64,000 bases of DNA from Xestospongia muta. Its lineage: Eukaryota; Porifera; Demospongiae; Haplosclerida; Petrosiidae. Shown here piece by piece: positions 8,803-53,200 of this stretch. A model generated the notes under the pieces. That model had not been told where the DNA came from and searched no databases. It saw nothing but the letters and a program-made list of their open reading frames with translations. How positions within the stretch are numbered: position 1 is the stretch's first letter; each line of letters starts with the position of its first letter. The position numbers and the translations under genes were made by a program. The stretch is taken from positions 3,822,932 to 3,886,931 of the forward strand of contig OY848925.1 in NCBI GenBank assembly GCA_963693285.1, read 5' to 3'.

Positions 8803-11455
8803 AGACAATAATTCAGTCTACATTTGGACAGTCAGCTGTAATACTCAATTACTCACATTTTAGTAATGCATTTAATTTTCATCCCAGCAGTAGCGGTTAT
8901 TTAAATTTAGAATTTGTTGCATGTGAAAATGTCCATATTTCTTACAAAGCCATAACCAAATTTGGTGACAGTCTGTATTCTCCAATCAAAATTGAGACTA
9001 TCAGTAGACGTTCCTATACAGAAGGCTATCCTAGTCAGGTCCGTTATTCAGACATTCAAACTTACTTTAGAGAAGACTTCCGTGATGGGTATATTGGTCA
9101 TGCACTAGCTACCTTCTCATGGCCTAAACCAGAAAGTGAGATTAACTAGTGTTAATAAATTCTTGTGTTGAAAAACTAAATATTTTATATTTTCCAGATG
9201 CTTCATTCTTGTCAAACTATCGACTGCCTCTTTTTTCCCAGACTAATCATTGTGGTGGAATTGGAAAAACTTATGAATACTGTATTGATAAAGTAAGAAA
9301 ACAGCCATTAATTTGTACAACTCAGAACATTTTGAAATAAACATTTGAGCTCATTACAGCATATTGTTACTAATGTAGCAGTACTTTTAACAGATTCACT
9401 AATGACTATACTTTAATTTAAATATAATGTAAATGAGACTATACACAATACCTTATAATAAGTAAACTCCTTTTAGGATGCTACGAAGGTTACAATTATT
9501 GCTGATGCACCAAATAAACCACTATTTTTTCGATCCAAGTATTATATTAGAGTTAGTTTATAAAAACTATTTCATATAATTGTTATTTGATCTTCATTAG
9601 TTAATAAGTGAACCAACTACGCTGAGTGATGGACAAACTGCTGCCAAAATTGTCAATCCAGAGTGTAAGTATCTGGAAATAAGTATTAATATATATATTG
9701 TTTTTTTAACTTGAGTTCCAATGCAAATAAATTTAAAATGTAATTTATGTTTCTGTTCTAATAGCAGTGAGTGATCCTCCAACAATTAACTTGATTTGTA
9801 ATTGACAGTATCAATCAAATGGGAATTTGATGTATATGTTAAATGGACAATACTAAAGAGATCTCAAGGATTTTTAGAGGCTATTGATAGATTTATTCTA
9901 ACACCACAGTTGGTTGATACTAGTTTAGATACTGATGTTACTAAAGTATAGAACTCTTGCCGTAGTTTCTATAGTGATGTTACTAAAATGTGATGCTGCA
10001 TTACACGATAATTTCATAAATAATTAGAACAAAATAGGCACCAGGATCGTGTGATTTTTCTACTTAATATAAGTGTTGCAGGTGGTAAACAGTATTTAAA
10101 CTATAGGCATGACAAGTGCAAGTTTAACCATAATGGGTGTTGCAGTGACAATTACAGTCAAGAGGCAGTTTTGTAAGACTCAGTTTTTACTTGTGCATTT
10201 AGTAGACTTAGTCAACTTTATTAACAGTAATCTTATGACAGCATCAACTGTTTCTAGATGTATCTACCTACTGCTGCAACTGCTGGCAAAAAAAACTGTC
10301 AGGTTGAGTATAATCTACGATAACTTCAAAATGAAACACTTTTACAAAATGTCTTACCTTGTAGTTAGGTTTATTTGGTATCCATAGTAATTTATTGGAA
10401 AAACTCCTGTTCCATCTTTCTTATGCTTTTAAGGAAGTCTTTTTGACTTTTCTAACTTTATCTTCCGTTGACAATCTAACTGTATGCTTGTATTTAATGT
10501 TTGCTATGAAGTTTTGTAACTGTAGACACTTTCAATACCACGTTAGAGTTTTTCAAAGTGCATTGCCAGCTAACAGAGACCGACACAAAAACACACTATA
10601 ATAATCTCTCATGCATTGGGTGGCAAGGGTTAATAATATATGTTTGATTGATTGGATAGCATTCTGAAATGTTTATATATTCCTACTCCTCCTAGATACT
10701 GGCATCGTGGACATTATTGAAGGTGTAACAGGATCATTGATTGAATTGGTTCTTGTTGTACTGTTCAGTGCAACAGTAGTTTTACTGTATCAAAGATACC
10801 ATATAAGAAAACTATACTTGAAATCATTTAAGGTATGTTTAAACAAACTTTGTGCAATCTTTTAGATATTTTCAGGAGATCAATAGTATTCAAAATAGAG
10901 GAATAATGAGTCAAACTCTATGGCTGGATCTAAAGTTGACTATGAAAGGAGATGAGTGGGAAGTCCATGCTAGTCAAGTTATAATTGAAAAAAGATTAAG
11001 GGAAGGATTTTTTGGATATGTTTTTCAGGGAGTGATTGGGGGTCTAATCAGCAATCCCAAAGTACTACCTTCAATAAGGAATAATGTATGTCCCATTGTG
11101 GCAATCAAACAGTTGAAATGTGAGATCGTTTGCACTGAAACTTTACTGCCAGTGCAAGTGAGAGAGATGACTTTCTTAAGGAGATTAATACAATGAAAAA
11201 TATAGCTAAGGGAAGAAATCCTCATGTTGTAAATATGGTTGGGTGTGTGACTATTGAAGAACCTCTTTATCTTATTATGGAGTTTGTAAAACATGGTGAC
11301 CTTCTTTCTTATTTAAAATCCATCAGGAATGCAGTAAGCACTGTAAATTATAACACAGTGACAGTTATTGGGGAAATTTTTTAATTTGTCAGATAACTGA
11401 AAAACAAATAACTGCTGGTCAATATTCAAACTATGAAAAAGTTGAATCTCACATG
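8803..11455 (+). pseudogene. Receptor tyrosine kinase, ectodomain to N-lobe (interrupted)
   Basis: Likely exons: ~8803..9135, 9198..9292, 9477..9551, 9601..9664, 9809..9945, possibly one near 10097-10177, then 10696..10832, ~10872..11333 and 11393..11455. The ectodomain is not a family I can name. 10696..10832 encodes a single membrane helix (LVLVVLFSATVVLLYQRYH) followed by basic residues. The kinase N-lobe follows: a degenerate Gly loop REGFFGYVFQG (first Gly replaced by Arg), VAIKQLK with the ATP-site Lys, then NPHVVNMVGCVTIEEPLYLI and HGDLLSYL, typical of RTK hinge regions. A one-base frameshift lies near 11140-11160, between the VAIK block and the alpha-C block. The HRD and DFG exons are absent here. 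The C-lobe continues at 22043 beyond an inserted 10-kb segment. I read this as an inactivated RTK. Confidence 0.7.
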
Positions 11456-15412: not shown

Positions 15413-18400
15413 TTAACAGATTTTCCTGTTTTCTGCTTTCCATTTTAACACAAAGTTAAGTATAGTTAAAGGCACTAACCCCAACAGAATATATGCAATG
15501 GCATTGACATAAGGATTATAGTACTGTTCAAACTCAGCTCTGTTACATTTTCCACTAACATAACCTAATGCTTCACATTTAAAATAATCTGTTAATGCAG
15601 AAACTTGTTTGTTTGTATTTGCTGTGTTGTAGCTAACGTTGACTAAAGTGAAGACACCAAAAACAATAATTGTACAAAATACTAAAATGATTTTCTTTTC
15701 TCCTGTACTTAAATGAGTCTTGCGATCATTCTTCTTACTTGTGTAGAGAGAGTACTACATTATAAAATTCCTAATAGTAGTATATTTAGATAGTAAGCTT
15801 ACCCTGTGAATTGTCCAGACGACCACTATCAATAAACACACTCCAGTAGCTAAAATAATATCAATGATAACAGAAGTATAAAACCACATATCTGAGTTGC
15901 TATTACAAAGTGCTGGTGGAAATCTGCTCAAATTATACTTGTATGTTTCAACAACAAGTGACACAATAACAGGAGGTAATGGCAATACCAAAGCTAATGA
16001 TTAAGACATATGCAATTATCCACGCATTATCATATATTTACCTAAAATGGTCATTATAGTAAACACACATTTCATCATTCCACGTTTTTCTATACGATTT
16101 GCATTGAAAGGAAATGTCACTTTAAAGAACAGGATTCCCACATGAAAAACCCACCAAAACATCATGTTTAAAGTACAGTAATTAAATAAAGTACCTATAA
16201 ATATAATAATAGTGGCTAGTACATAAACTGTAAAGATAAATTACCGGATAGTGTACAAAATGCTGTTGGGGTATTTAGACTGTCAAGAAGACTTACTGAA
16301 CTGCAAAGAAAATAATTCCTTCCTATTATCACAATCAGTAACAATATAGCTGTATAAAGGTAATAAATAGAATTAGAAATACATAAATCTTCTGTATAAC
16401 TTACCAATGATACTGATATCAATTGTGACAAATACCATAAGAATGGATGGATATGTCAGCCTTTATATAGTAGAAATAACATTATTGTCAGAGTAATTAA
16501 ATGAAATATCACTAACATAGTTTTATAATCCTTAATTGATAATCCTATTATCAGTATACAAACCAACAAACCAAAAACAGATGCAAATATTTCTGCTGAG
16601 ATCAGAACTTGAGTTCCTACATGACTGCTTTGCTCAAATTTGTCACATCTAGGTTGACATGTCAAGTTAATTTCAATGAAGTCCTCACGACAAGTTTTAG
16701 TGAAGTTAGACATATTTTGAGCTTTCTGAACGTGGGTGTAGTTGTAGCTTTGAGCTATGGAGAATAAAATGAAATAGGTTATATTGGATCATTCTTATTT
16801 AAATACCATATGATAAGTCCTGACAGTTTGGTAAGCTCTCCTCAAAGCCATAATTAATAGCCAGATTCCATAATGAAGCACATATACCAGTACTAATGTC
16901 AATACAGTCTTCTCTTGATGCTGTATATATGTCTTTATTACGACAGTCATAAAGTGGGAAGTAATATTGACAGAGAAATGGAATAGCAACTTGTTGACAA
17001 TCTTTTTGTTGTACTAAAAGTGAAAGTAAGTCAATGAAATTATATCTAATATAGATAATAAATATTGAAAAATGCACTATGGGGTTTCTCATATATCATA
17101 TGACCTTTATCATGATAATTATATCTAACACTGTTGTCATTATGTTAACATGTTCACATTACCTAATTTGATTACATATTTGTTGTGTATCTATATACAA
17201 ACATCGGCTTAAAATAAAAGATTAGCTATCTCTTTCACTTCTCACAGGTTAGAGATAATAGTTTTCCCAAATGTATAACATTCTAGTTGTTTACTGTTGT
17301 ATGTACTTTCAGTATTATTAAAATCACTAACCTAAAAATGTATTGACCATGATCAAGTTCTTTTCTTTTTGAAGCTGAGTTTGTTTAGATTGATTGATGT
17401 AAAGATGTCCATCTCCAACAGTACAGATATCCCATTTTGTGAGAAAATCCCTACATATTGTACCAATATATACATCATAGTTATAACAGCCTGGAGATGT
17501 TGTGTTGACTTGACCCCAGGCAACAGGGAGATAAGTACAGTTTGATGTACTGTTTGTATTGTTAGAACTGTGACTTCTCAACAGATCATTGTTATTCGTA
17601 GTCTATGAAGTGATAAAACTAAATATAATTCTGACATGAATGCCATGTTTTAATTTATAATCAATTGACCAATTATCCAATTACAAATTACATATTGTGC
17701 TATTTTTCATGAATATTATTTTAAAATGGTAGATTGATCATTAATCTAAGAAACTCATGATCATTTACATTGAATGTAATAGGACAGGATGGCATGCTAC
17801 AAAGGGTTAACATTATTCTGCTGTCATTGTTAAAAATGCTGATAGAAAGTCATGTAGTTTTCAATTGTCAGAGCATCGAAGATAGGTTCAATAGTTATTA
17901 TTTCTCTTGTGTATATACTGGCCGTGGGTTGTCAATATGTACAATGGTAGCTTTATTGTACCATTATGTGTGTAAAGCATTTTACTATAGAATTATAATG
18001 AGACATTCTTACATACTATATACATGACCTAGTATCATTTGTTTAAGTACACAAATTATACATTTCCTTAGAATTAGTAATCAAAACAATGTACATTGTA
18101 ATTGTTTTTTGAATAAATACTTTTAATGTATTTATTGGGGATGCATGCAAAATAAGTGAATTTGAATAAGTTAAAACCACCATTCTATTTTAATTGTGAT
18201 GTGTGCAGTAATTCCTATACCTGTAGTTATTATATATCCAATACACAAAAAAATAAATTATTAAACAACATAAACCTTACATAAACTCAATCATTAGCTG
18301 CAAATCATTACTTTAACTTCTTTGACATCGCTATCTACACACACATCATTGAATGTCCTTATTTTTTATTAATTATGGATAATGTTTATGGATTGTTATT

Positions 18401-25543: not shown

Positions 25544-27774
25544 TTACTGTAAGTAGTCATGTCTTATTTTTTTAGCTAAAGGTACAAATCCTTCAACACT
25601 CTCAAGGGCAGTAATAAGTGTTTCAAATAACAGTGGCTGACTATGTATAGTGGACTTCAGTCCTCTCATTAGAGACAAACCTTTCTCAGTATCTGTTTTA
25701 TTGCTGTTATCGACAACCTCATCATAACAAGACTCTGTTATAAGGTAATCACTGTATAGTTTTGGGGCTAAAGATTGTCTATTAGTGGAGACAGACACAA
25801 GATTAGATAACTCAGCAAAGTGAGCACGAAAAATGGTTTTGATTTTGCTGTCATGTTGAGGTGGAAACGTAGTACCTATTGTATGAAGTGAATGGAATAC
25901 AATAACTGTACAATGAACTAAGCATAATTAAATTACCTCCTTCTGTTGGATGAGGAGAAATAATACTGCAATTACCACCTACAACAAATAAAAGGTTTCA
26001 TTAATTTTAAGTTGCATCATGCAAATTGATCATAAATAATGCTTCTTAATACTTCTTACCAGTGTTTTTAAAATATGTTCGGACGACACATATCTTTATG
26101 TTGTTTGGTTCTATTCCTTTTAAAGGAACACTATACTGTATCTTTCTAACAGTACTTGGACTGTCATCTACCGATATTGTGATAAGTAAAGTGGGAAAAT
26201 ATGGAGGAGTTTGAACACCAAATGTATCCACTTCAGTTTTATATATCTATATAATAAGTTCACAGTATAATAACAAAAACATTAAAATATATATGTACAT
26301 ATTATACCTGTGTAGGTTCTATATGAGGACGAAAAGTCCATCCATTAAAAGGATAGCTTTGTTCTTCCTTAAGAAGTAGTTCAATACAACCACTGTCATC
26401 TTGAAATGTGAAGGACAAGTAGATATCTATTTCAACATTACGTGGTAGAGAGGTCTTTATGAACTTTATGGAAAAAGATGTAAATGTTTATAGTAAATTG
26501 ATGTGTTACTTACTTCTAATAATGCATTGAGATGTTTAGCAACCATAAATCTCATTAACCACTCACTATCATGACGTTTAATTTCATATACCACCTGACC
26601 TACATACCTGTTATCTGGAGATGACTTATGAGACTGATCTACAAAGATAATAAGGACGTAATTATTATGATGATTAGTTAATAATGTTGTATACATTGAA
26701 CTGGAGTAGTTATAAAGACAGTTCATTAGATATTGCAAGAGAACATGTCAAAGTATGTTGATAATAAGGTTTATACTAGCCAAGATTGTTACATAAACAA
26801 ATGTTGTTTTAACATTAGTTATTAGTTAAACTATATAACAGTGATAATATGTAGTATAATTTACTTTTTGCAGAAATAATATTTTGAGACTCAAGTACAT
26901 CTTGTGTTGTAGGAGCATCTTCAAAGACTATTTCATCATCATTATCAGATGATCCAATCATTTCCTGAGACTCAGAATTAGACTGGTTGCCAGTAGTTGG
27001 TTGGTTATCTGCCTCCTCAGATGATGTATTGTCATATCCTAGAAACCACAACATTGGACGAATAATCGACTTAATTATAGCCTTTAAAGAGAATTGTGAC
27101 AGATAGATGCTGCCATATTGGTCTCCTGGTAAAAACTTTCCTCCTTCCTCTAACTGAAACTGGTATGGAAGAACATGTTGGTCAATAGAAGCTGTAGCAA
27201 AGCTCAGAAAACTACTGTGATCTTCAGTAACTAGATTTGCACAGTGTTGGATCTCTAATTTTACTGGTTTAAGTAGTGGTTTTGAGAGAGATATACAATA
27301 TACAATACTAATTAGTTCAGTGTTTTCTGGTAAAGCATACTGTCCACCAACCAGTGCACTCACAGATATTTCAATTCTCTCTCTTGGTGATAGAGTGTTT
27401 GGAGGAACACTAATTCTTAGACCATATTTATCCCAGTTGAAAGATTGACTATAGCATCCTTCAATTTGGAATAATGTTTTCCCTCCTATGAACACACCTG
27501 GAAGAGTATCTGTAAAATGGCAAATTAACAGAGCACTTAAAATAAAATTGTATGAGTGTACATGTACTACTATACATAACATATTTATTAATATTCTTTC
27601 TGTTAGACTGATATTAGCTATCTTTTTGTTTACTTCAATTTTAGAAAATGTTTTTATTTTCTTGTTTACTATAGATTTCACCCTTGCATTAAAACAACTC
27701 ATAGCAATGAAAGCCATAATAAGAAACAATTGTAATTCATAGATCAAAATTACTGGCATATTAACACACTTCAA
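25544..27774 (-). CDS. ZU5 - UPA-like - CARD protein (possibly the 3' end of the helicase gene)
   Basis: Exons 26865..27509 (open to an ATG at 27774 if unspliced), 26514..26638, 26308..26463, 26060..26246, 25937..25978, 25544..25875; phases agree to the TAA. Exon 1 is a ZU5 domain (GGKTLFQIEG, GLRISVPPNTLSPRERIEI, LLKPVKLEIQHC). It ends near QFS (27088-27096), where FIIND and UNC5/PIDD-type ZU5 domains carry an HFS autoproteolysis site, so here His is replaced by Gln. An acidic Ser-rich linker follows, then about 130 residues of beta-rich sequence in the position of a UPA domain. The last exon is a CARD-like helical bundle (LAPKLYSDYLITESCYDEVV to GFVPLAKKIRHDYLQ). The architecture resembles CARD8 and the NLRP1 C-terminus. 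Two start models exist: an independent gene beginning at 27774, whose N-terminus is hydrophobic, or in-frame splicing from helicase exons 21-22 (28500..28583, 28361..28417). The latter fits both phases and a strong GTGAGT donor. Confidence 0.75.
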
Positions 27775-28356
27775 CTGATAAACTGAAACAATACGTTACA
27801 TACATCTCCATTATAAAGAACATTGTACTCATGAGGTGCAGTAAGAATATCAAAAATAGTGATTAGCATGCTTTAGTTTGACGAAAGTATTTCACTATTT
27901 AGTAGTTTTTAGTGTAATTCTTATAGACTATCCATGAACTTGTGACTTAGTCATTACTGAAGTATTATAATAGAAAGAAACACTACAGATATTGAAAGTT
28001 TTGATCAGCTATATTGATATGACATTTCATGTTTTCTGCCAATACATATCAATGAACAATCCTGGCCATTCCTTGATAAGCAGTACTACCATCTGCCTAA
28101 TTACAACTATAGCATCAAAATATTATTACAGATGGTATATATATTTATAGTATGTGGCATGGGTATGCCATATTGAGTACACTCTGATGTATAAAAACTG
28201 AAGCATGACTCATCATAGATATGGGGATTTTTGTCATTGACTTGTTGTTTTGTATCACTTACAACTAACATGAACAATTAAAAGAATTATCACACTTGTC
28301 TGCAACTTAATATTTTACACTCTGTGTTCAGTCTTGATGTTCATACAGCACTCAAC

Positions 28357-31300
28357 TCACCTCGTGTTGTATGAGCATCTTGACCACAACTGTATAGTAC
28401 AACTGTATAGAATGATGCTATAAGTATTGCATTGACATACTTGATGATCGCCAAATATAGCTAGATAAACTGCATTACCTGCAGCTATAGAATATTTACC
28501 TCTATCTTTAATACATCCATATTTATCATAGATTTCAAGTAGCTTCTTCCATGTTTTATCATACCCCAGCAAAGTAGTATTTCCTACAAGTTTGATATTA
28601 AAGAGATTAACTTAAGCAAGCAATATATTGATACAATATACAATATGTAATACTGTAGCAAAATATAAGGACAATGTATAATTATAAGTAAAATATGAAT
28701 TGTTATAAAGTGTTCTTACCAATAATAATTAATCCATGTTTAGCACGAGTAATTCCAACATTTATTTGATGCTCATCTATGAGGAATCCTAAATTTTCTG
28801 TCATCCAATTGGAATCAGCTTGAACAAATTTAGGATTTTTTATTTCTCTCATTGGTAGAGATCGTACTGTTGTTAATATGACAATATCATATTCATCACC
28901 TACATTATGAAAAAACGCTATATTTTCAGTTCTGAAAAAAAGCATACAATAATAACATTATTTCAATTATGAAAGCAAACGTACAATAAAAATATATCTA
29001 ACCTTGACTTTCAACAATAGTTGTTACTTTTGGTTTTGATTCTTTACTGTGTTTTAAATCACTTCTTATCATTTGAATAATAAGATCCTTTTGAGCAGCA
29101 TAAGGAGTCAACACAGCTATACTTTGATATGATATATTGTGCTTAATATGTAATTCTTGTATAACTTCCAACTACAGTTAAAACCAACAATAAATGTTTC
29201 ATTTCGTACACAGACTTACAACTTTAAGAGCTTCAGTGTAGTTAGATTTTGAATGGATGTCAAACTTCCCTGTGAAAATTTTGTCACTGGTTTTATTGAT
29301 TTCAATAATATCAAACACAACAATAGGATGTATAGAAGGCCAAAATTGGCTGATAGTTGGACTCAGAGCATCTCTACTACGACATTTGACAGTGATATCT
29401 GTTTGTAGCTTGTTGTCATAAAAAACTTGTGAAGGTGCACTACAAATAATCTCATGCTATACAACAAAATGGTAAATGTGAATCTGTTAACAATATTTGA
29501 AAATATGAACCTATGTAATAAACAAAGAGGCCCAGTAATCAATTAACTAACAAGTCAATATAAAGTACATTCATTCCTTCGATATTTCTAAAATGATTAT
29601 ATTAAGTACCAAAGTGTTAATATTATGCTTTATATAACATTTTTATTGCTGTACAATAATAACTCCTTCTATGGACTCATGAACATCAATGAAAAAATAA
29701 AACTTACCATTCTATATTGTGTGTGTAAGGTGATTAGTAAATCTGGTCTTAATTCTGCATATCTTTCAAAAAGAGATACTCCCATTCCACATTCTCTAGC
29801 CATGTGATATTTGATTATTGGTTGAAGTTGTTTATGATCTCCAATAAGTACTACATGATCACATAGACTGGCTGCTGCTATAGTCTCAGGTTCATTGGCC
29901 ATACCACACTCATCTACTATACATTGAGCTATTCTACCATCTCCTGCTAATTTGAGAAGTCTTCCACTGCAAGTTTCATTACAAGTACATAAAATAACAT
30001 CATATTGTCTTCGTAATAATGCTACCTCTGCTTCTTTGATGGCTTTCTTGTATCTACATATAAATAATAACTTATATAGAGTATGATTGCTTTCATTATA
30101 CCTATTTCTTTGTGATAAAGAAAGAATTATATTTTCTTCTTTGATGAGATTTTCATATTCTAATCTCATCGCTTCAATATCAGGATTGATTTGTCTTATT
30201 TTAAAGTGTAGAGCATCTTCTTTGAGTTCTGGTAAACAACGACCCTCGACATCTTGTTTGTGATTGTCTTCACTGAGTTCAACATTGACATCTGGATTTG
30301 AATGATTTTCAAATTTTGTCTTGTGGGCTGATTGCATTCTTAAGTCATCACAAGGATCTGGATAATCCACTCTTTCATGAGTTGTACCATAAAGACGAAT
30401 AATCCGAAGTTGTTTACTTACAGGGAGATTATTTTTATTCAAAAATCTCAGTTTTTCTAAGTAATATGGAATCAATTTTATTTGTATATAAATAACCATG
30501 CTTACTGTGAACAACATCAACTGCTTTGTTTGAAGGACAACAATAGAGAACACACTTTTTTGAGTCAGTATTTATTTTGGAAAAAATGTATGTTAAATGC
30601 GCTCCAACTACACTTTTGCCTGTTCCTTTAATATATTGAATAAAATACAATTGTACAAGTATATGTTTACCTGGTGGTCCTTGAATCAGTTGAAAGTTAT
30701 GTTGAAGTGCAAGATATATTGCGTCTATTTGAGTCTGATTCAATGAAATGTGATTGTTTTCCCAAAGTCTCAAAGCCAAAATATCTTGGTGAATGTTCAA
30801 TTTATCAGTGTTCACTAGAAGTTTATCTGCAATATTTTTATCAAGTTACCAAAAGGACTGACCTCCAGTTGAAGTAAGGTTATCACAATGCTTTAATCCA
30901 ATTGCTACTTTCTTTGTAAGTTCAGACCAGCATTTCTTTTTGCTAGAATTTTCATCATTAGAATCATTACTGTCCTTTATCAAACCAGATTGTAAACGAT
31001 TAAACACTCGGCTATAAAGCAAAAGAAAATATAATATTATCGTAACTATAATGGTATCATACTTGAAAGAAATAGGCATTGCAATGATTTGCATTTCACA
31101 ACATGGCCATCGATCCAAATATGACTTTAATTTTTCTGATATCCAACAATGACTTCCCATGGCTTTCATTGACAACTGAACTGCTTTGACATTTTTAGTA
31201 TCCTTTTCCATCACTTTCTGCTTTTTGGTTATAACAAAATGAAATACAGCAGTAACAGACTCTTCTGTGTGATCTATGATATCATCTTCATTACTATCAC

Positions 31301-34300
31301 ATGTTAAGTCATATCGGACACATACTAGGTCACCAACTTTGACTTTTATGAAGTCAAAAATGTTGAGTTTTTCTGATGGAATCTTTAGTGTCAGCTCACT
31401 TTCTGGTTTATAGTGCTTGTCATCAATACAATTATCTACACTAACCAACTTTTTAGGCCATTCCAGACGAGCATTTTTAATCATAGTTATCACCTGAGTG
31501 TTTATACCTTCATATGCTGCTTCAGCAACTAGTACTTTGCTCCAAAGTTGAACATATTCATCGATAGAATGATATTGTTCAAGAGATGCTTTTGGTAGTT
31601 GAACATCAGAAAAGCACAAAGCTGGATTTTGATTGTGTTGTACACAAACTCTAAAAGTGGGAGCTATTTCCATTAGCTGTAATTCAGGAGATGGCAGGGG
31701 TTGTTTCAATGAGTTTCCTAACCACACAGTAATGGCCTCACCTGGTTGGAAAGACCTTGTGATGTCATATATAACAACAGGACTCTTTGAGAATTTAGAA
31801 TATGATGATTGCTTACTTGCACTATTTGGGAGTGGTACATTTGGAAGCTTTTGTATTAAATTAGTGATATACTCTTGAGAAGATGATTTAAGATATTGAT
31901 GAGCTAAATCCCATACACCTGATGACACTTCAATTGTAGTGTTAATAGCTGAAGCTCTGTATTTGACACGTTTCATTTGCTTTTGATCATCCTTCATCTC
32001 TTCAGTTGCCTCAAGATAACTGAATACACTAGCTTCAATGCAACAATATATACCACTTGTCTCTTCTATTGGTAATGGGTTGTTTGTGAAGTTATTAATT
32101 CGAGGATCACAAAGTAGGTCATTGAGACTATTATCCAGTGAAGCTAAAACAATACGCCATTTTGGTTCTTTATCATTATCGTATTGGTTTATGTTTAGGT
32201 CAGTATATTCAAATTGAGTGTCTTCAGCTAAGATCGACTTAAAATCAAGAGAAGGGATGCAAAGTTGATACTTGTGCTCTTTGACTGTTGGGAATGATTG
32301 TGACACAAATGCTTGAACACATTTTAATCCAGTTTCACATTCTCTTGCTAAGAGAACTTTACTAATGCTATGTTCATATCTCTTAGCCATTTTTGCTTTC
32401 ATGTTAAGATGATTGCAAATCTTTTGTAACTCTTCTTGTTTATATGGGATATCATCACTATCAAGTAATGCTATAACAAGCCTCTGTACTAGTATGTCAA
32501 AGTATCGTCGAATTGGAGATGTAAAATGAGTGTAGGCATCAAGTTGTAAACTGTGATGTGCTAAAATAAAGCTATTATTGTCATCCTGGTTTGGAGACTC
32601 TTCCAATTCGGCTGCAACATATTCAGCACGTTGACTTATCATTTTCAGTGCAGCACATGCTCTAGCTAATTGTGGGTATAAACTATCATTAGATAAGAGC
32701 CAGAGAATCTTTCTTTGCTCACCAATTTCAAAGGCTGTTTTTAAACATTGGAGTAAAGTATCTGTGATAATCAAAGGAATTACATTTTCTTCGTCTAATT
32801 CATCTGGTTTAGAATATAATTTTAGTGCTAGGGAATAACAGAATGTTTGTTGAAAGATTTCCCTAAATTTAGCTAGATTTTCCAATTGGGGTGGGGCTTG
32901 TCTGCGCAGTAGTATCATTTGTGTAAGATTTTGGTGCAAGTAACTCGCTATATTTGAATTAGCCCAAATCATCAATTCTGAAACAAGTAGATGGGACTGC
33001 CAACAGTCATCCTCTTTCTCATCCTGGTCTGACACAATACAGAATGCAGCCTCCTTTAGACGTTTTTCTCGCAAATGCATCACAATTTTAAACAGGAACT
33101 TCATAGTGTTAGCCATGCACTTGTCTCCATTTTTAATCTCATACTCTCTCACTTGCTTATGTGATTCTTCATCTTTAATTGGCTTTCCATCTAACATATC
33201 TTGTGCTGCTTCATATGTTAATCGAGCTTGAGATGTCACTTGGGCTTTCTCAGGGTCATTACACAATACTTCTAATATCTTTCCTTCCTTCACCACTACA
33301 GTGGCTGTTACTGCTAATACATCACGAGTTGTATTATAGTTGAGACTAAAGATTTGATTTGTTAATTTAAGTGGTAACATATGCTTGACTTCACATCCAC
33401 CATAAACTGAAGTTCCTCTTTGTCTAGCTAATTTATCAAGATCATGATCCTTGGGAATGTATTTGGCAACATTAGTAATGAGTATAGCTAATTTGTACAT
33501 GCCATCATCTTGAAAGGATTGGAGGGGTTCAATGGGAACTAAACTAATTGCATCATCAATATTAATAGAATCTGGAGGATCAATTGTAAATGCTTGATCA
33601 TAATGTGGAACTGCAGTATCTCTATTTGGTGCTTGAAGTGTTATATCAATGTTGGTGATCTCGTTGTTTGATTCAACATTGTGAACAATAGTTAAAAGCC
33701 TTTCAGTAAAAAAGAGGTTGGTTGTACGAGGCAAGGCTTCTACTACAGCTCCTAGTGGTTTCCTATATTTTGGTGCCCAGCCAAGAACTTCAACAACAAA
33801 CAAGAGGTTTTGTGCCAGATCAAATGGAATTAATTCTTTAGTTTGTGGAAGTTGATCATCATTTTCATGTACAAACTTCAAAGATGATTCTTTGAAAACA
33901 GTAATGTAATCAACATGCATATCATGATCCTGATATCTCAAAAGCTTTCGTGAGATTTTTGGCAAGTTGACAATAGCTGGGACAGATTTATCCAGAGGAT
34001 AGAAATTGATAATATTGTGTTGGTCAGCTCTACAAACATATTTAGTAGGGTGTCTTGCTTCTCTTAGAAAAATAACTCTTCCATGCTCCTCGTTGATGTT
34101 GTCTGGACGTGTACCAAACACATGTACATCAACTATATCCCCATCAAATGCACCCCTCCTATGATTATAACCATTAATTACTATTGGATTAGGATGCTTT
34201 GCTGCATTAATAGGAAAAGCTTTGGCTTGACGCTTATTTATAATTGATAATTCACAAACAACTACTTTGTTTGTAGCATCATGTTTAATATCTTCAATGT

Positions 34301-37300
34301 CATTATCATCATCTGAACTTTGGTCAACTCTGCCTTCAATTTTAACAATATCCCACCTGGTATCACTATGTTCCTCAGCAATTTGGAGCTTGCAATATTT
34401 ATATCTGGGTGTCTCCTGAATTGCTTGTTGGTAAGACTTCAAAATGCTGTCTTTAGTAACTAACTCATCAATATCATCATTGATATCACTGGTCTGAAAG
34501 ATCTCCACTTGGAGACACTGCAATGATTCTTGAACAGTTTTCATACCTGCTGATACCTTGGGTGGTATATGAAATGTTTTAGATAGCACACATCGTCTGA
34601 TGTAATCCTTCCAACAGGAACACTCATTTTTCATGTATTCCTCTATTTTCATTAAGAGGAATGGATTACCAGCACATACTACAAGTGACTTAGCACGTGT
34701 TAAAGCAGTATTAAAAACATATTGACTACATGGAGTCTTAGTGGGATTTTCTGACCTTCCTTCAGTTGTAGTGGACTCAACTGTACTCAAAAATACAGCC
34801 TCAAATTCTCGACCTAAATGTAAATAGATTTTTTTAATATTTATGCTTTTTTATTATATGTTTAATTTTTTAATATATATTTTAAATTTATATTTTTGAT
34901 TGTGAGTCACCTTGAATGTCATAAGCTGTTAGTACTTCTATTCCTGATAGTTGTCTGTATTTTCCTTTACGAAGTTCTTTAATAAAATGATATTTCTGTG
35001 AGACTTAAACTAAATAAGTCACATGAATGGCTTCTGTTTTTACCTGATTGGCTGTTGCTGCGATTATACAAATGTTTCGTATGTCTTTATCTTCCCACTC
35101 TAATGTCGGCCATTCATCAATATATTTCAATGCCTCCTTTAAAAGTAAAGAAGCTTCTAATTCATTTTTTCCATCTCTTATTTCCCAAATGTCATCTACT
35201 AAACTTGAACATATGAAATGAAGTGGAAATCTAGCTTTTGGATGCAAACAAGTTGCTGACTTAGCTGCTGTTATAAGTGCTGAATCATAAAAAAGATAAG
35301 ATGGTAGAGATAGCAATGCATGATGACATCGATAATTAGTGAGAAGCGAGGCAGTATGTTTCATTGAAAACTCTGCTAATTTTTCATCTCTGTATCTCTG
35401 GTGTAGTCTCTCTAGGAGTGACAGTTTTAATCCATGTTCTCTTGGTATATCACCTAAGACAAGCAATGAAGGACCAACCTAGAGAAAAAGTAAATTAGTT
35501 ATAAGATCTTTGTTTATAACAACTCACTTGTTTGTGGTCTCCTGCAATAACAATCTTAGTGTTCCTATCAGCCAAACATAATGGAGCAATAGATTCTGGC
35601 TCACGAGACTGTGCACCTTCATCAAGTAGAATGTGAGTAAAGAATCCTTTATGAACATTACCCAAGAGGTGAAGAGAAGTTGAAAATGTAGTGACAACTA
35701 AGTGGACTTTCTCCAGTCTTTCTTTAGAAAGTTTCTTAGAAGTGCTGTAATGCAATGCATGCACTGGGTTACAGTTGTAATTTTGATTGGGAACAAGACG
35801 AAGGGCTTTAGTGTACCATCCATTGGCATGCATCTTTCCAAAGTAATTCTCAATAAATGCGTCAGCAGAAGATTGATGATGAGCACAGATGAGGACACGT
35901 GAATTTCGATCACATTGTAATATCTGGTAAGCTGTACGAGCTAACAGTCGAGTTTTACCTGTTCCAAAAGAACCAATGACAAGAACAGGAGCTTTATCAC
36001 ATTCACAATTGATAATTGTTGTTAGTGCCCTCATTTGAGTTGAATCAAGTTGGATCAAATCAGAAACACAACGTATTGGATGCTTTAATGTCAAATGATT
36101 TTCAAAAACGAAAGCATCTGTAAACTCATTTGCATCTACTGGCATAATCCTTTCTAGAACTTCAGTAGATAATTTATTAAGTGCATCATGAAGACGATCA
36201 AAGTAAGACCATTTAAGTGTGAAACTAACACAGACATCCTCCAGTTCAACTTCAGATTTTTTGGCTCTATAATCTTGCTTTATTAGCTTAGATAATTCTT
36301 CTTTTGTGAATGATATCAATATCACATCCACCTCTCTTCGCTTTGGACTGCTTCCATTTACTATATCAGCCTTTACTGTTGTTGAATGTGAAAAGTGTAA
36401 AACAATGTTTTCTCTCTCTGCAGTTGCTTGTTTGATATACGATATTGTGTCACCTTTAAGATTGTCACCAGAAATCAACCCAAATCGTACATGCTCTTCT
36501 TCATAACGATCCCTCAGCTGAAAAGGCTTTAAACCAGGGTGAAAGATAGTCACATTGTAATGACCATCGCATCTAAATTAATTAACATTATAATAATCAA
36601 TATGATTAGGATAATAAAAACCTTTTTTTAAGAATTTTGTTATGTTCTTCCTCTTCTTGACACAATAGTTGGTGAAATTTTGTTTTATAGTTGTCTCGAC
36701 TAAGATCTGCTTTCAACAAACCTTTACCTAGAGGTTTATGTTCATGTCTAAATGCATTGCCTTGTAAATCACAAATTGAAGAAGTCTTTAAAATTAGCTT
36801 TTCTGTCCCTCTCTTCAAAGTGGATGAACATGGGATAGCCTCGACAAGTGTCTAAAAAAGGGAAAAATTAATAGGGACTTTTTGATTAAAAATGCTTACT
36901 ATTGCAGGTCTTGTATTGACAATAGTATTTTTGATGGTTTCTTGCCTAGACCTCTTGTAATTATGAGAAAGCTGTCTCTTTGTTGTATGAGGAAATGAGA
37001 TACTTTTGTGTTGTGTTATAGGACTTTGTAATTTGGGTTTATCTTTCTCTGCTTCCTTTGTAGGTTCCTTAGAAGGTGGAATATAGTTCATTGGAGTTTG
37101 TTGACTCATGGTGTGAGTAAATACATCCTTTAATTGTGACTTGTCTTTTTTTGACCTCTTTTGATTTTTAGTTTGCTTACTACAATCTTGTTCATGTATT
37201 TTGACCATCATTGAAGTCACCTTATCAGGATTGTAGGTTGATTTCTTTTGTGCTACACTTAAAGTATCATTTGTAGTTAGCGTCTTTTGAGTTTCAGGCA

Positions 37301-40300
37301 ATGATAGTGGTTTTGAAGCAGGTAGCCTCTTTTTCAGAAGTGGTTCATTTTGTCTTGTGTCAATAATGTGTACTGGTTCTTTAGTCTCACATACAAGACC
37401 CATTTGAGAGACTACTTTTGGCGAATAATGACTTGAAGCTGTTTCTTTTCTTTTTGTTTGCACATCAAATATAGGCCATGGATTATACTCTTCATTTGGT
37501 CCTAGTCTTTCATTAGATGGTGGCTGTATTGATGATATTGATGGTTTTAACCGTAGTTCACTTTGAACTTTTGATACTTTTGTTTCCATTGTTATACTCT
37601 GACTTTGAAATAAAGCCATTATTTCTAAACAATTAAATGACAATTACATTAATAAAGATATTCATTTAAAAATTTACCATTGCATTGTCGGTTTTTACGA
37701 ATTTTATGAAGTAGACTTATAACTTTGGAATATTTATTTTTAAGGCAATCTGGAACAACAAAGGCACTATTACATAGGCACCAGGTAATAAATTCTCTCC
37801 AACACCATTTTGGTTTATCCATTGTAGCTTCAGACATCATCAGAACTAAAGGATTACCAACAGCTACAACTAGAGATCTTGCTCTTGTAATTGCTGTGTT
37901 AAATACAGCAGGATGACAGAAACTCTTTAGTAAGTCAAATGGTCTTCCAGATGACTCTAAACTCTCTGAAGCACTAATGAGCAAAAGTGAATACTCTTGA
38001 CCTACATGGATGTTTTTAATAATTAAAAAAACACTAAATTTGACTAAATTAACCTTGCATTTGATAGCTAGTACAAAAATTAACCCCCCTTAAACACTCA
38101 TAGTCTCTAGTTTCATAAATTCCTCTGCGAATACAATTGGCCTATGAAAGATACATGCAATTTTTTGAGAATGAATTATGTGCCACATTACCTGATTTAA
38201 ACTAGCTGTCATAATACAGACATCTTCAATGTCCCATCCTTCATACTTTAATAATTCATTTACTTCATGAAGAATTAATGAGGCTTCATATGGATTTTCT
38301 GGATTAATAGGAATGTCATTATCAAAACTAGAACAAATAAATTTAAGAGGATATGAGCAAGCAGGATGACATTCAGTAACAGCTCGTGGTACTAAAGCTG
38401 ATTTATAGAACAAAGTTGAAGGTAGTTCCAGAAGATCAGGATGACAACGATAATTACATGTTAATGAGACAGCATAGTTGAGTGCTGAGCCACCAAATCT
38501 CTCATATTGATTGTGTAGTCTCTCAAGTAATGACACTCCTAAACCATACTGTTGAGGCCCATCACCAAGTACAACAAGTTTGGGACCAACCTAATATAAT
38601 TATTAAAATTTCACAATTATGAATAAAACATTCAATTATTATCCACTTACCTGTTGACTGTCACCAGCTATTATAATACGTGTATCTTTATTTGCCATAA
38701 GAAGTGGCGCAATAGTCTCTGGTTCTCTTGTTTGCGCTCCTTCATCAATGAGAATATGTGTAAAATAATCTTTAGGAACAGTTCCAGACATTCTCAATGC
38801 ACCACCACATGTAGTAACAATTACAAGATACTGCTTACTTCGGTATTTCTCGAAATGTTCTTTAAAGTCAAAAGCATTAACAACATACCTATCTTCCCTC
38901 AGCTTAGCTTGGCGACGTTGACTGGTAACACGAATAACTTCAACATCCCATGGATTTTGTTTATCTTTAATCATTTTCATAAAGTAGTCATTCATGAAGA
39001 TATCAGCAGAGTCTTGTTGATAACAACAAATAAGAATACGACCTGCTATATGTTTGTCTTTACAGTTATGAATAACATATTCTGTGGCAACAGCTAAGAG
39101 ACGAGTCTTGCCACAACCAAATGGACCAGGTATTAAAACAGGAGCTGATGGTCGACTAAAGAGCATTGTTTGAAGACCATGAAATTGATCGCTTTCCAAT
39201 TCAAGTTGAGGGTATGTTGGTTTTGGTACCCGACTGAGGTCAAGGTCTTCACTGAAGTCTTCTTGAGTAGGAACAATTCTTTTTAAGGCATTGTCATCTA
39301 TTCGACTGACGACAATATTTAAATCATTAAAATAGGAGTGCTTAACTTCAAACCTTACAGCTAGAATTAAACCATTCAATTTAGCAAGAAAAATCTCTGC
39401 ATTTCTATCATCAAATCCAATGTACAACTTTTCATTAACTGTATTGTAATTGCAGCTCAGTAACATAGCTGTGCATTTAATGAAAGCCTTATCAGGTCTT
39501 GTAATATTTGCATGACTACTGGCCTGGAGAGCATATGCTATTTGACTTGTACTCATTCCCTCAATGTAAGCATATAAGCTGTAGTCTTCAATAGGTTTTC
39601 TGTGTGATGATGGGATGTCTTGTTTCGTAATAGTAACAACTCTGTATTGACCATCACATCTATAAGAGTATGCATGTTATTATAGAGACTATATAATAAA
39701 TGACATACTTTGCTTTGAGGACTTCAACATGTTCTTCTTCTTCATAATAAAGCAAAGCTCTATATTTTCGTCTGTAGTTTTCCAAAGTAACTGGCAGCAT
39801 CATGTCTTCTTCGGGTGGAGGATGTTTCTGTCTCTCCCAATATGTATCCCAAACTGGAAAAGTCTGTGGTGAATGCTGGACAGTGTGATGACTGGGTTGG
39901 CTGGAGTTCACTTTGGCTAGTGATGATGTGGCCTGCAATAAGACGGTATTTTCCTAATAATTGATATTAATAATATTCATGACAGGATATAATATGCAAT
40001 GAATATTCGTAGTGTCTATTCGTCCAGCAGGAAATGTATACTTTGTTGTATAAAGGTTTAGGGGGTGGGGATCAGTTTAATACACAACAAAGTATACATT
40101 TCCTGCCGGACGAATAGACACTGCTATGAATATTGGCAATATTAAACAAGATGACAGTATACTTACTTGAAGTTTTGAATATTTTGGCAATTTAACAATA
40201 TCTGGCTCTAGTCTTCTATAGCTAGCAGAAGTGTTCACACGAACATCACTATCAAAAGAACTGTGCTGCAGCTGTCTTTGTCTTCCTCCAGGTGGATACC

Positions 40301-40607
40301 GTTCATCTCTTAAAAGTGTATTCCAAACATTTTTCTCGGCTTCACTATGAGCATAAGTACATTTTGGATAGAACCTACATGTGCCACCATCATAGCATTT
40401 TCGAAAAAATCTTGGAGGACGGAACTCAACTGGCATAGGTCTGATTTTGACCAAAGTACCACAATCTTCAGTTACTAGTACATTCTCGTGTTGTCTGTGC
40501 TCTAGTTTTGACCTGCACTTCAATATTAACAGTGAAACATCACTAGGATTCCTTTCGTGGCAGCGGCGACAAACTGCAGTTGATATTTGTCTCGGACTAG
40601 TAGCCAT
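28357..40607 (-). CDS. HELZ2-like multi-helicase with CCCH finger and RNB nuclease domain
   Basis: Exons: 40167..40607, 39709..39932, 38651..39659, 38192..38590, 38054..38141, 37678..38001, 36900..37624, 36622..36851, 35528..36572, 35044..35478, 34911..34995, 31063..34813, 30863..31011, 30671..30826, 30506..30625, 30102..30456, 29708..30053, 29220..29456, 29003..29171, 28720..28899, 28500..28583 (or read on to a TGA at 28357). An in-frame TGA 15 nt upstream fixes the ATG. Residues: CCCH finger 71-87; UPF1-type SF1 helicase A (Walker A GPFGCGKT ~400, DEGAQ, GDSQQ); disordered basic linker 829-1070; helicase B (GSFGTGKT ~1346, DEGAQ); RNB domain (DPPDSINIDD ~2077, SPIRRYFD ~2438); helicase C (GPPGTGKS ~3017, DECG, GDHKQLQP, QYRM). 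This is the HELZ2 domain set with one extra helicase. The RNB position normally held by the second catalytic Asp is Asn. By family it should be an RNA helicase/3'-5' exoribonuclease, cytosolic or nuclear. Confidence 0.85.
31012..31062 (-). other. 51-nt frame-preserving intron
   Basis: GTATGA...TTATAG between the 3.75-kb RNB exon and the next. Its length is a multiple of three and it contains no stop, so retention would add 17 mostly hydrophobic residues and keep the frame. Confidence 0.6.
40011..40122. mobile_element. 112-bp foldback (MITE-like) element in helicase intron 1
   Basis: Arms 40011-40050 and 40081-40122 are inverted repeats of about 40 nt ('agtgtctattcgtcc' against 'ggacgaatagacact') with one clear mismatch plus a small end difference, around a 30-nt G-rich loop. 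The duplicated 5' fragment of this gene at 44930-45510 lacks it at the matching place (about 45040). Confidence 0.8.
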
Positions 40608-50227: not shown

Positions 50228-53200
50228 TTATTTGTCAGCAATAGTACTTATAGTAAGGCCACCATCAGCAAACGTGGCAGTGATAGCGGAAGATGAATTC
50301 ACTGGTGCTTTATCAGATTTTCCTGTTTTTCTTGTTCTAAGTTTTTGCAGTATTTTTTTAGAAAATTGTTGAACTGCTTTCCATTTTAACACAAAGTTAA
50401 GTATAGTTAAAGGCACTAACCCCAACAGAATATATGCAATGGCATTGACATAAGGATTATAGTACTGTTCAAACTCAGCTCTGTTACATTTTCCACTAAC
50501 ATAACCTAATGCTTCACATTTAAAATAATCTGTTATTGCAGTAACTTGTTTGTTTGTATTTGCTGTGTTGTAGCTGACATTGACTAAAGTGAAAACACCA
50601 AAAACAATAATTGTACAAAATACTAAAATGATTTTCTTTTCTCCTGTACTTAAATGAGTCTTGCGATCATCCTTCTTACTTGTGTAGAGAGAGTACTACA
50701 TTATAAAATTCCTAATGGTAGTATATTTAGATAGTAAGCTTACCCTGTGAATTGTCCAGACAACTACTATCAATAAACACACTCCAGTAGCTAAAATAAC
50801 ATCAATGATAACAGAAGTGTAAAACCACATATCTGAGTTGCTATTACAAAGTGTTGGTGGAAATCTTCTCAAATTATACTTGTATGTTTCAACAACAAGT
50901 GACACAATAACAGGAGGTAATGGCAATACCAAAGCTAATGATTAAGACATATGAAATTATTCATACATTATCGTATGTTTACCTAGAATTGTCATTATAG
51001 CAAACACACATTTCATCATTCCATGTTTTTCTATACGATTTGCTTTGAAAGGAAATGTCACTTTAAAGAACAGGGTTCCCACATGAAAAACCCACCAAAA
51101 CATCATGTTTAAAGTACAGTAATTAAATAAAGTACCTATAAATATAATAATAGTGGCTAGTACATAAATTGTTAAGATAAATTACCGGATAGTGTACAAA
51201 ATGCTGTTGGAGTATTTAGACTGTCAAAAAGACTTACTGAACTGCAAAGAAAAAAATTCCTTCCTATTATCACAATCAGTAACAATATAGCTGTATAAAG
51301 ATAATAAATAGAGTTTGAAATACATAAATCTTCTATATAACATACCAATGATACTGATATCAATTGTGACAAATACCACAAAAATGGATGGATATGTCAG
51401 CCTTTACATAGTAGAAATAACATTATTGTCAGAGTAATTAAATGAAATATCACTAACATTGTTTTATAATCCTTAATTGATAATCCTATTATCAGTATGC
51501 AAACCAACAAACCAAAAACAGATGCAAATATTTCTGCTGAGATCAGAACTTGAGTTCCTACATGACTGCTTTGCTCAAATTTGTCACATCTAGGTTGACA
51601 TGTCAAGTTAATTTCAATAAAGTCCTCACGACAAGTTTTAGTGAAGTTAGACATATTTTGAGCTTTCTGAACGTGGGTGTAGTTGTAGCTTTGAGCTATG
51701 AAGAATAAAATGAAATATGATATATTGGATCATTCTTATTTAAATACCATATGATAAGTCCTGACAGTTGGGTAAGCTCTTCTCAAAGCCATTATTAACA
51801 GCCCAATTCCATAATGAAGCACATACTCCAGTACTAATGTCAATACAGTCTTCTCTTGATGCTGTATATATGTTTCTATTACGACAGTCATAAAGTGGGA
51901 AGTAATTTTGACAGAGAAAAGGAAGTGCAATTTCTTGGCAATCTTTTTGTTGCACTAAAAGTGAAAGTATGTCAATGAAAACATAATCATTTATTAATAT
52001 AGATAATAAATATTAAAAAATGCACTATGGGGTTTCTCATCATATTACCTTTATCATGAAAATTATATCTAACATTGTTGTCATTATGTTAACATGTTCA
52101 CATTACCTAATTTGATTACATATTTGTTGTGTATCTATATACAAACATCGGCTTACAATAAAAGATTAGCTATCTCTTTCACTTCTCACAGGTTAGAGAT
52201 AATAGTTTTCCCAAATGTATAACATTCTAGTTGTGTACTGTTGTATGTACTTTCAGTACTATTAAAATCACTAACTTAAAAATGTATTGACCACGATCAA
52301 GTTCTTCTCTTTTTGAAGCTGAGTTTGTTTAGATTGATTGATGTAAAGATGTCCATCTCCAACAGTACAGATATCCCATTTTGTGAGAAAATCCCTACAT
52401 ATTGTACCAATATATACATCATAGTTATAACAGCCTGGTGATGTTGTGTTGAGTTGACCCCAGGCAACAGGGAGATAAGTACAGTTTGATGTACTGTTTG
52501 TATTGTTAAAACTGATACTTCTCAACAGATCATTGTTATTCGTAGTCTGTGAAGTGACAAAAGTAAATATAATTCTGACATGAATACTATGTTTTAATTT
52601 ATAATCAACTGACTAATTATCCAATTACAAATTACATATTGTACTATTTTTTATGAATATTATTGTAAAATGGTAGATTGATCATTGATCTAAGAAATTT
52701 ATGATCATTTATATCGAATGTAATAGAACAGGATGGCATGCTACAAAGGGTTAACATCATTCTGCTGTCATTGTTAAAAAATGCTGATAGAAAGTCATGT
52801 AGTTTTTAATTGTCAGAGCATTAAGATGTGTTCAATAGTTATTATTTCTTTTGTGTATATACTGGCCATGGGTTGTCAATATGTACAATGGTAGCTTTAT
52901 TGTACCATTATATGTGTAAAGCATTTTACTATAGAATTATAATAAGACATTCTTACATACTATATATGTGACCTAATTGAGATATCATTTGTTTAAGTAC
53001 ACAAACTATACATTTCCTTAGAATTAGTAATCAAAACAATGTACATTGAAAATGTTTTTGAATAAATACTTTTAATGTATTTATTGGGGATGCATGCAAA
53101 ATAAGTGAATTTGAATAAGTTAAAACCACCATTCATATTTAATTGTAGTTACTATATATCCAATATACAAAAAAAATAAATTATTAAACAACATAAACCT

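What the first reader, a model, noticed from the sequence alone, without database searches (positions are those of the whole stretch)
25544..40607. Possible single gene fusing a HELZ2-like helicase/RNB nuclease to a ZU5-UPA-CARD (FIIND-CARD-like) tail
Seen: the last conserved helicase C exon has a donor (G|GTAAAT at 28499/28500) leaving one base. A 57-nt exon at 28361..28417 accepts that phase, ends with a strong GTGAGT donor in the same phase, and splices in frame to the ZU5 exon at 27509. The whole chain of 28 exons sums to 12,096 nt with no stop until after the CARD. Known: HELZ2 carries helicases plus RNB; CARD8 and NLRP1 end in ZU5-UPA-CARD; RIG-I-like sensors join CARDs to a helicase. 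Inference: this would be a separate combination of nucleic-acid helicase, nuclease and CARD signalling in one polypeptide. I know of no described protein with this order.
Basis: partly seen in the sequence, partly recalled or inferred. Interest (0 to 1): 0.92.

Follow-up and report, generated by a model that had tools for sequence, protein, structure and literature searches.

The report
Sponge antiviral helicase beside death-signal tail
A sponge gene for a large RNA-unwinding and RNA-cutting protein sits in frame just ahead of a truncated cell-death signalling module, and the two may be read as one protein, but only transcripts can tell.

Summary
The 28-exon chain is real as DNA: 12,096 nt, all GT-AG, one stop after the CARD. 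Exons 1-21 are a sponge HELZ2-like gene. The last six encode ZU5, a UPA-like stretch and a CARD fold. Whether this is one gene is undecided. For: a strong phase-1 donor where the conserved helicase ends; the ZU5 copy lacks the 5' exon found with 19 of 20 relatives, yet dN/dS is about 0.4; no poly(A) hexamer in the next 840 nt. Against: the linking intron is the longest (851 nt, others at most 251); the 57-nt exon is partly repeat-derived with a weak acceptor; 96 codons open directly upstream of ZU5 fit a separate start at 27759; no paralogue tail or database protein examined is fused. Coral and amphioxus HELZ2 models carry an N-terminal TRADD-like adaptor, so HELZ2 plus death signalling has precedent.

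The parts
40167..40607 (-). Exon 1, start codon at 40607; cysteine/histidine-rich stretch resembling a CCCH zinc finger
   Evidence: Frame and splice sites; Pfam zf-CCCH_2 only 11.1 bits against a cut-off of 25.8
37678..39932 (-). Exons 2-6: first SF1 helicase unit (AAA_11/AAA_12)
34911..37624 (-). Exons 7-11: linker and most of the second SF1 helicase unit
31063..34813 (-). Exon 12: end of helicase 2, OB_HELZ2, RNB nuclease
   Evidence: RNB 7e-57; OB_HELZ2 29.9 bits against 29.3
28500..31011 (-). Exons 13-21: third SF1 helicase unit, end of the conserved HELZ2-like protein
   Evidence: nine relatives read end between 9 residues before and 12 after this point
28357..28500 (-). Read-through frame after the donor: 47 codons, then a stop at 28357 (end of the helicase gene if it is not spliced on)
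28361..28417 (-).
27510..28499 (-). Spacer, intron or intergenic; holds dispersed repeats at about 28101-27891 and 27678-27562 and a two-copy stretch at 28386-28184
27508..27795 (-). 96 open codons directly upstream of and in frame with the ZU5 exon, first ATG at 27759: possible separate start
   Evidence: same frame in P0003
26865..27509 (-). ZU5 exon, with a Phe-Ser (QF/S) motif at the end of the domain
   Evidence: ZU5 27.1 bits against 21; motif
25937..26638 (-). Exons 24-27: UPA-like region
   Evidence: Alignment to A. queenslandica ZU5 proteins; not found by Pfam
25544..25875 (-). Exon 28: CARD and stop codon

Best explanation
A HELZ2-like gene has acquired a 5'-truncated copy of a ZU5-UPA-CARD module at its 3' end and is read into it by splicing, most simply from 28500 straight to 27509, with the 57-nt exon skipped or used as a minor form. 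By inference from NLRP1, CARD8 and PIDD, the protein would fold its ZU5, cut itself at Phe|Ser (QF/S), and hold the UPA-CARD piece on the helicase-nuclease until RNA engagement or destruction of the N-terminal part frees it to nucleate CARD signalling. Shown here: frame, splice signals, ZU5 and CARD, truncation, a selection signal on the ZU5 exon, the conserved Phe-Ser motif. Inferred: the spanning transcript, cleavage, release and CARD output.
For: Strong phase-1 donor where the conserved helicase ends; the two own-genome paralogues read end 4 residues past that place with a stop. In-frame chain with or without exon 22. The ZU5 copy lacks the upstream exon motif (..KDVSVQFNYL..) found next to 19 of 20 related ZU5 exons, and no ATG-led first exon with a phase-1 donor of at least 4.5 bits was found in the spacer (none printed). 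Branch dN/dS about 0.41 over 146 codons, 5-95% bootstrap 0.22-0.67, 0 of 60 bootstraps at or above 1. No AATAAA or ATTAAA in the first 840 nt downstream of the donor, but AATAAA 78 nt after the CARD stop. F-S in 18 of 21 ZU5 exons read, ours included; the other 3 have F-C. Precedents: A. queenslandica sacsin-like protein whose end matches the whole ZU5-CARD region; coral and amphioxus HELZ2 models with TRADD-like_N.
Against: The linking intron is 851 nt (990 nt if exon 22 is skipped) against 36-251 for the other 26, and the spacer holds dispersed repeats. 96 codons are open upstream of ZU5 in its own frame: 0 of 5,000 whole-spacer shuffles, 0 of 5,000 local shuffles, 0.26-1.0% of codon positions in four other stretches of the window; in any sense frame a run of at least 95 codons arises in 22 of 1,000 shuffles. 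597 nt between the helicase stop and ATG 27759 is close to the 587-bp median intergenic distance of A. queenslandica (PMC4773876, passages). No fused relative: 0 of 2 paralogue tails read (of 6 paralogues), 0 of 7 fetched HELZ2-like homologues, and of 2 matches among proteins of 1,586-5,047 aa neither has RNB. The selection signal may partly predate the move to this locus, and the tree does not resolve the place of our ZU5 exon.
Confidence: 0.45

Rival explanations
1. Two neighbouring genes. The HELZ2-like gene reads through to the stop at 28357 with a tail of about 47 residues; a separate ZU5-UPA-CARD gene starts at ATG 27759 and reads unspliced into the ZU5 exon, with a new N-terminus made from former intron and repeat DNA. 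The CARD module then works without the helicase.
For: 96-codon in-frame extension, improbable by chance; the same open frame in another assembly, P0003, with no change over that stretch but four in the ZU5 part, as read by eye; 8 of 8 other copies read of the repeat inside it have a stop in this frame where ours is open; spacing typical of a compact sponge genome; homologues of both halves occur apart.
Against: Codon score of the extension is noncoding-like: -0.11, against +0.10 for the ZU5 exon and -0.18 to -0.21 for spacer frames; shuffles of it average -0.19 with 95% at -0.10. Part of it is a dispersed repeat. The helicase tail of 47 open codons is uncommon, 4-7% of codon positions in four other stretches of the window, and a strong donor would be left unused.
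Confidence: 0.35
2. The ZU5-UPA-CARD stretch is a 5'-truncated relic that is not translated; the helicase gene ends at 28357 or uses an unseen terminal exon.
For: The native upstream exon is missing; the spacer holds repeats.
Against: Six exons keep an open frame and GT-AG sites; branch dN/dS is below 1 for the ZU5 exon (exons 24-28 were not tested).
Confidence: 0.15

Closest known systems
HELZ2 (helicase with zinc finger 2)
   Same: SF1 helicase units, OB_HELZ2 and RNB; many of the 120 listed of 1,208 matches to the last helicase region are named HELZ2-like
   Different: If fused, carries a ZU5-UPA-CARD tail; the relatives' tails read here end near the place of our donor. Human HELZ2 lowers LINE-1 RNA, and its overexpression abrogates the interferon induced by it (PMC9839780, abstract)
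CARD8 / NLRP1 (FIIND-CARD) and PIDD
   Same: ZU5 with a Phe-Ser motif at its end, and in CARD8 and NLRP1 a C-terminal CARD; PIDD cuts at HF/S, CARD8 and NLRP1 at SF/S (PMC3210808, passages)
   Different: Residue before Phe is Gln here; the partner would be a helicase-nuclease; cleavage not tested; UPA not recognised by Pfam
ZU5 genes of the own-genome cluster C9:1.16-1.30 Mb
   Same: ZU5 exon up to 76% identical; similarity runs on through the later exons, most fully in L014
   Different: Those read have a conserved upstream exon motif and, in L009, a Death-domain exon; ours has neither
GT4-conflict + TRADD-like_N + HELZ2 models of Oculina patagonica (P0108) and Branchiostoma lanceolatum (P0113)
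   Same: HELZ2 core in one predicted protein with a cell-death adaptor
   Different: Adaptor is N-terminal and of another family; gene models only
A. queenslandica sacsin-like protein (P0001)
   Same: ZU5-CARD-like region in a giant protein (35% identity over the whole region)
   Different: Partner is Death-sacsin-HEPN, not a helicase-nuclease; Pfam does not flag its ZU5 at E <= 1e-4
RIG-I-like receptors
   Same: Idea of joining an RNA helicase to a CARD
   Different: From knowledge: RLRs have N-terminal CARDs and SF2 helicases; here AAA_11/AAA_12 (SF1 type) and a C-terminal CARD behind ZU5

Membership tests
HELZ2 | RNB nuclease domain | tested here: met
   PF00773 E 7e-57
HELZ2 | OB_HELZ2 domain | tested here: met
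   PF25049 29.9 bits, cut-off 29.3, marginal
HELZ2 | SF1 helicase units on both sides of RNB | tested here: met
   AAA_11 and AAA_12 over cut-off before and after RNB
HELZ2 | CCCH zinc finger near the N-terminus | tested here: inconclusive
   zf-CCCH_2 11.1 bits against 25.8
FIIND-CARD (CARD8/NLRP1) | ZU5 domain | tested here: met
   PF00791 27.1 bits against 21
FIIND-CARD (CARD8/NLRP1) | UPA domain after ZU5 | tested here: inconclusive
   Aligns with A. queenslandica relatives; no Pfam hit at E <= 1; proxy model P0004 below pLDDT 50 over most of that part
FIIND-CARD (CARD8/NLRP1) | Phe-Ser self-cleavage motif at the end of ZU5 | tested here: met
   QF-S in ours; F-S in 18 of 21 exons; the residue before Phe differs from SF/S and HF/S
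FIIND-CARD (CARD8/NLRP1) | Actual self-cleavage | not testable with these tools
   Needs expression
FIIND-CARD (CARD8/NLRP1) | C-terminal CARD | tested here: met
Single fused HELZ2-ZU5-CARD gene | Continuous in-frame chain with usable splice sites | tested here: met
Single fused HELZ2-ZU5-CARD gene | Transcript spanning the junction | not testable with these tools
   No reads available
Single fused HELZ2-ZU5-CARD gene | Same order in a paralogue or another species | tested here: not met
   0 of 2 paralogue tails read, of 6 paralogues; 0 of 7 fetched homologues; neither of the 2 matches among proteins of 1,586-5,047 aa. The search reaches only relatives that share short exact words
RIG-I-like receptor | SF2 DExD/H helicase with N-terminal CARDs | tested here: not met
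   Helicases match AAA_11/AAA_12 best; the CARD is C-terminal

The most novel reading that the evidence does not exclude
One polypeptide of about 4,000 residues joins a helicase-RNB-helicase antiviral-type enzyme to a self-cleaving ZU5-UPA-CARD release module, so that disturbance of the nuclease itself (bait or guard) fires a CARD signal. With the TRADD-like-adaptor HELZ2 models of coral and amphioxus, this would mean that animals have wired HELZ2 to cell-death signalling more than once, at opposite ends of the protein.
Probability: 0.4. Interest if true: 0.77.

Novelty: new variant of a known kind. Interest (0 to 1): 0.5.

Why it matters
If one gene, it would couple a HELZ2-type RNA nuclease-helicase to inflammasome-type output in a sponge, and offer a natural sensor in which the effector enzyme is its own bait. 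It would bring together how HELZ2 connects to immunity and how FIIND-type release spread among animal proteins. If two genes, it is an ordinary neighbourhood in a compact sponge genome, though still with an unusual truncated ZU5-CARD gene.

Tried and rejected
Rejected: A. queenslandica as the source. Its HELZ2-like protein P0037 matches the 7 HELZ2-like RNB loci of this genome at 39-44%. Rejected: exon 22 as a conserved exon, although its codon score is coding-like. Rejected as support: P0003, a 97% identical ORF, because it begins at ATG 27759 and runs from the former intron through ZU5 into the next intron, as an unspliced genomic ORF call would; it says nothing on splicing. Considered and kept as weak: an acceptor at 27782 that would join an extended ZU5 exon to the helicase in phase; it scores 2.4, below all 25 training acceptors. 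That script's test junction used 27781, one base off, and was discarded.

Limits: one search scored 150 of 182 ZU5 candidates and 150 of 399, so absence of ZU5 near other HELZ2-like loci is not complete; I compared positions by eye. Of 1,208 hits the best 120 were listed and 7 were fetched; the listed Pfam accessions were read by eye: none names ZU5 (PF00791) or CARD (PF00619), two name PF20694. The four JGI homologues may be incomplete at their ends. 19 of 20 for the upstream exon motif is 13 by pattern, 5 by a looser pattern and 1 by eye (L021); L027 is unclear. In one search four or more plus-strand loci were read on the wrong strand and redone. The first tail count used a wrong frame and was redone. 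dN/dS covers 146 codons of the ZU5 exon only, with sister and outgroup sets chosen by me. The comparison stretches contain real exons, so their rates are upper estimates for non-coding DNA. The exon-22/linker similarity (0 of 1,000 shuffles as good) is also seen in the repeat copy L032, so I did not build on it.

Full report

Where it lives. The window lies in a held genome of 158 Mb in 28 contigs. It has 7 long-frame HELZ2-like RNB loci including ours (the seven that P0037 matches) and a large ZU5 family: 149 matches at E <= 1 from 150 scored of 182 candidates. The organism is apparently not A. queenslandica, because P0037 matches the seven loci at only 39-44%. By position lists compared by eye, only our HELZ2-like locus has a ZU5 exon next to it; the ZU5 lists are incomplete.

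The end of the helicase. In the two paralogues read, L029 and L030, the protein stops 4 residues past the place where ours has its donor. Seven fetched homologues end between 9 residues before and 12 after it (the JGI ones may be incomplete). Ours has no stop there: the frame runs 47 more codons to 28357, a length seen at 4-7% of codon positions in four other stretches of the window. At 28500 it has a donor of 9.7 bits, a strength found 0.17-0.42 times per kb. No AATAAA or ATTAAA follows until 27658, while AATAAA lies 78 nt behind the CARD stop.

The start of the ZU5 module. Similarity to the related ZU5 genes fetched breaks off at the ZU5 acceptor, 27518-27525 at the furthest. Next to 19 of 20 related ZU5 exons a motif like KDVSVQF(D/N)YL, taken to be the preceding exon, lies about 80-100 nt upstream, and L009 has a Death-domain exon further up. 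Ours lacks the motif within 3 kb, and L009's upstream frames match nothing in the window at E <= 0.01. It is therefore a 5'-truncated copy. It is nonetheless open over six exons, and the ZU5 exon shows dN/dS about 0.41 on its own branch by three-point distances over 146 codons (0 of 60 bootstraps at or above 1). The tree does not resolve its place, and some of that branch may predate the truncation.

The spacer. 28499-27510 holds dispersed repeats. 26 of the 57 nt of exon 22, and its donor, overlap a stretch whose other copy lies in apparently non-coding, microsatellite-rich DNA. An equally good open phase-1 exon appears in 19 of 400 shuffles and 2 of 64 plus-strand stretches. Its codon score is coding-like, +0.15 over 18 codons, too short to weigh. 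The chain stays in frame without it, so the fusion idea does not depend on it.

The main objection. Directly upstream of ZU5, in its frame, 96 codons are open with an ATG at 27759. Neither 5,000 whole-spacer shuffles nor 5,000 local shuffles reached this; four other stretches of the window show it at 0.26-1.0% of codon positions. In any of the three sense frames a run of 95 codons arises in 22 of 1,000 shuffles. 8 of 8 other copies read of the repeat inside it have a stop in this frame. This favours a coding extension, either as the start of a separate gene or, less likely, as a longer exon spliced to the helicase through a weak acceptor at 27782 (2.4 bits). Its codon score is noncoding-like (-0.11). 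The helicase stop and this ATG are 597 nt apart; the A. queenslandica median intergenic distance is 587 bp, and its mean intron size reads as 326 bp in the table passage, the column being inferred from its 9 genes per 50 kb (PMC4773876, passages).

Mechanism. CARD8 and NLRP1 cut themselves at SF/S and PIDD at HF/S at the end of ZU5, and the CARD8 pieces stay together (PMC3210808, passages). Ours has QF-S, and F-S is present in 18 of 21 exons. If fused, the likeliest working is release: the helicase-nuclease with ZU5 holds UPA-CARD until RNA engagement or degradation frees it. Everything from transcript to release is inferred. Human HELZ2 lowers LINE-1 RNA, and its overexpression abrogates the interferon induced by LINE-1 (PMC9839780, abstract), which makes an RNA-guarding role reasonable.

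Precedent and novelty. Among proteins of 1,586-5,047 aa only two matched the ZU5-CARD region, a sacsin-like A. queenslandica protein over all of it and an ankyrin protein over 28%. HELZ2-like models of Oculina patagonica and Branchiostoma lanceolatum carry GT4-conflict and TRADD-like_N at the N-terminus; a Montipora capricornis model carries GT4-conflict. A published survey describes TRADD-N fusions to DDX60, Mov10, RLR-like proteins, sacsin, FIIND and UPA-ZU5, and a word search of its main text finds no HELZ, RNB or UPF1 (PMC8195603, passages). HELZ2 with a C-terminal ZU5-CARD would thus be a new variant of a known habit. My paper searches found no description of it.

Verdict. Observation confirmed. 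Single gene: open, 0.45. Two genes: 0.35. Untranslated relic: 0.15. These weights are judgement, not computation.

Noticed in passing
Own genome C9:1163491-1302414 (L009-L017 cover part): 15 ZU5 matches on one strand, several spaced about 9 kb and over 90% alike in parts; L009 has a Death-domain exon upstream of ZU5.
   Followed up: partly
P0108 (Oculina patagonica), P0113 (Branchiostoma lanceolatum), P0072 (Montipora capricornis): HELZ2-like gene models with GT4-conflict, and in the first two TRADD-like_N, ahead of the helicase-RNB-helicase core.
   Followed up: partly
P0001 (A. queenslandica, 4,979 aa): Death-sacsin-HEPN protein with a ZU5-CARD-like region: another giant protein with this module.
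   Followed up: partly
window 26889-26921 and 28350-28381: A stretch of the ZU5 linker resembles the 3' part of the 57-nt exon and its donor (0 of 1,000 shuffles as good), and also the repeat copy in L032; origin unexplained.
   Followed up: partly
window 15416-16788 and 50231-51729, minus strand: Two nearly identical sets of membrane-protein-like open frames 35 kb apart on either side of the helicase gene, with a more distant one at 4131-4571, suggesting a duplicated neighbour gene (by eye).
   Followed up: no
window 10843-11193, plus strand: Open frame resembling the start of a protein kinase domain (by eye).
   Followed up: no
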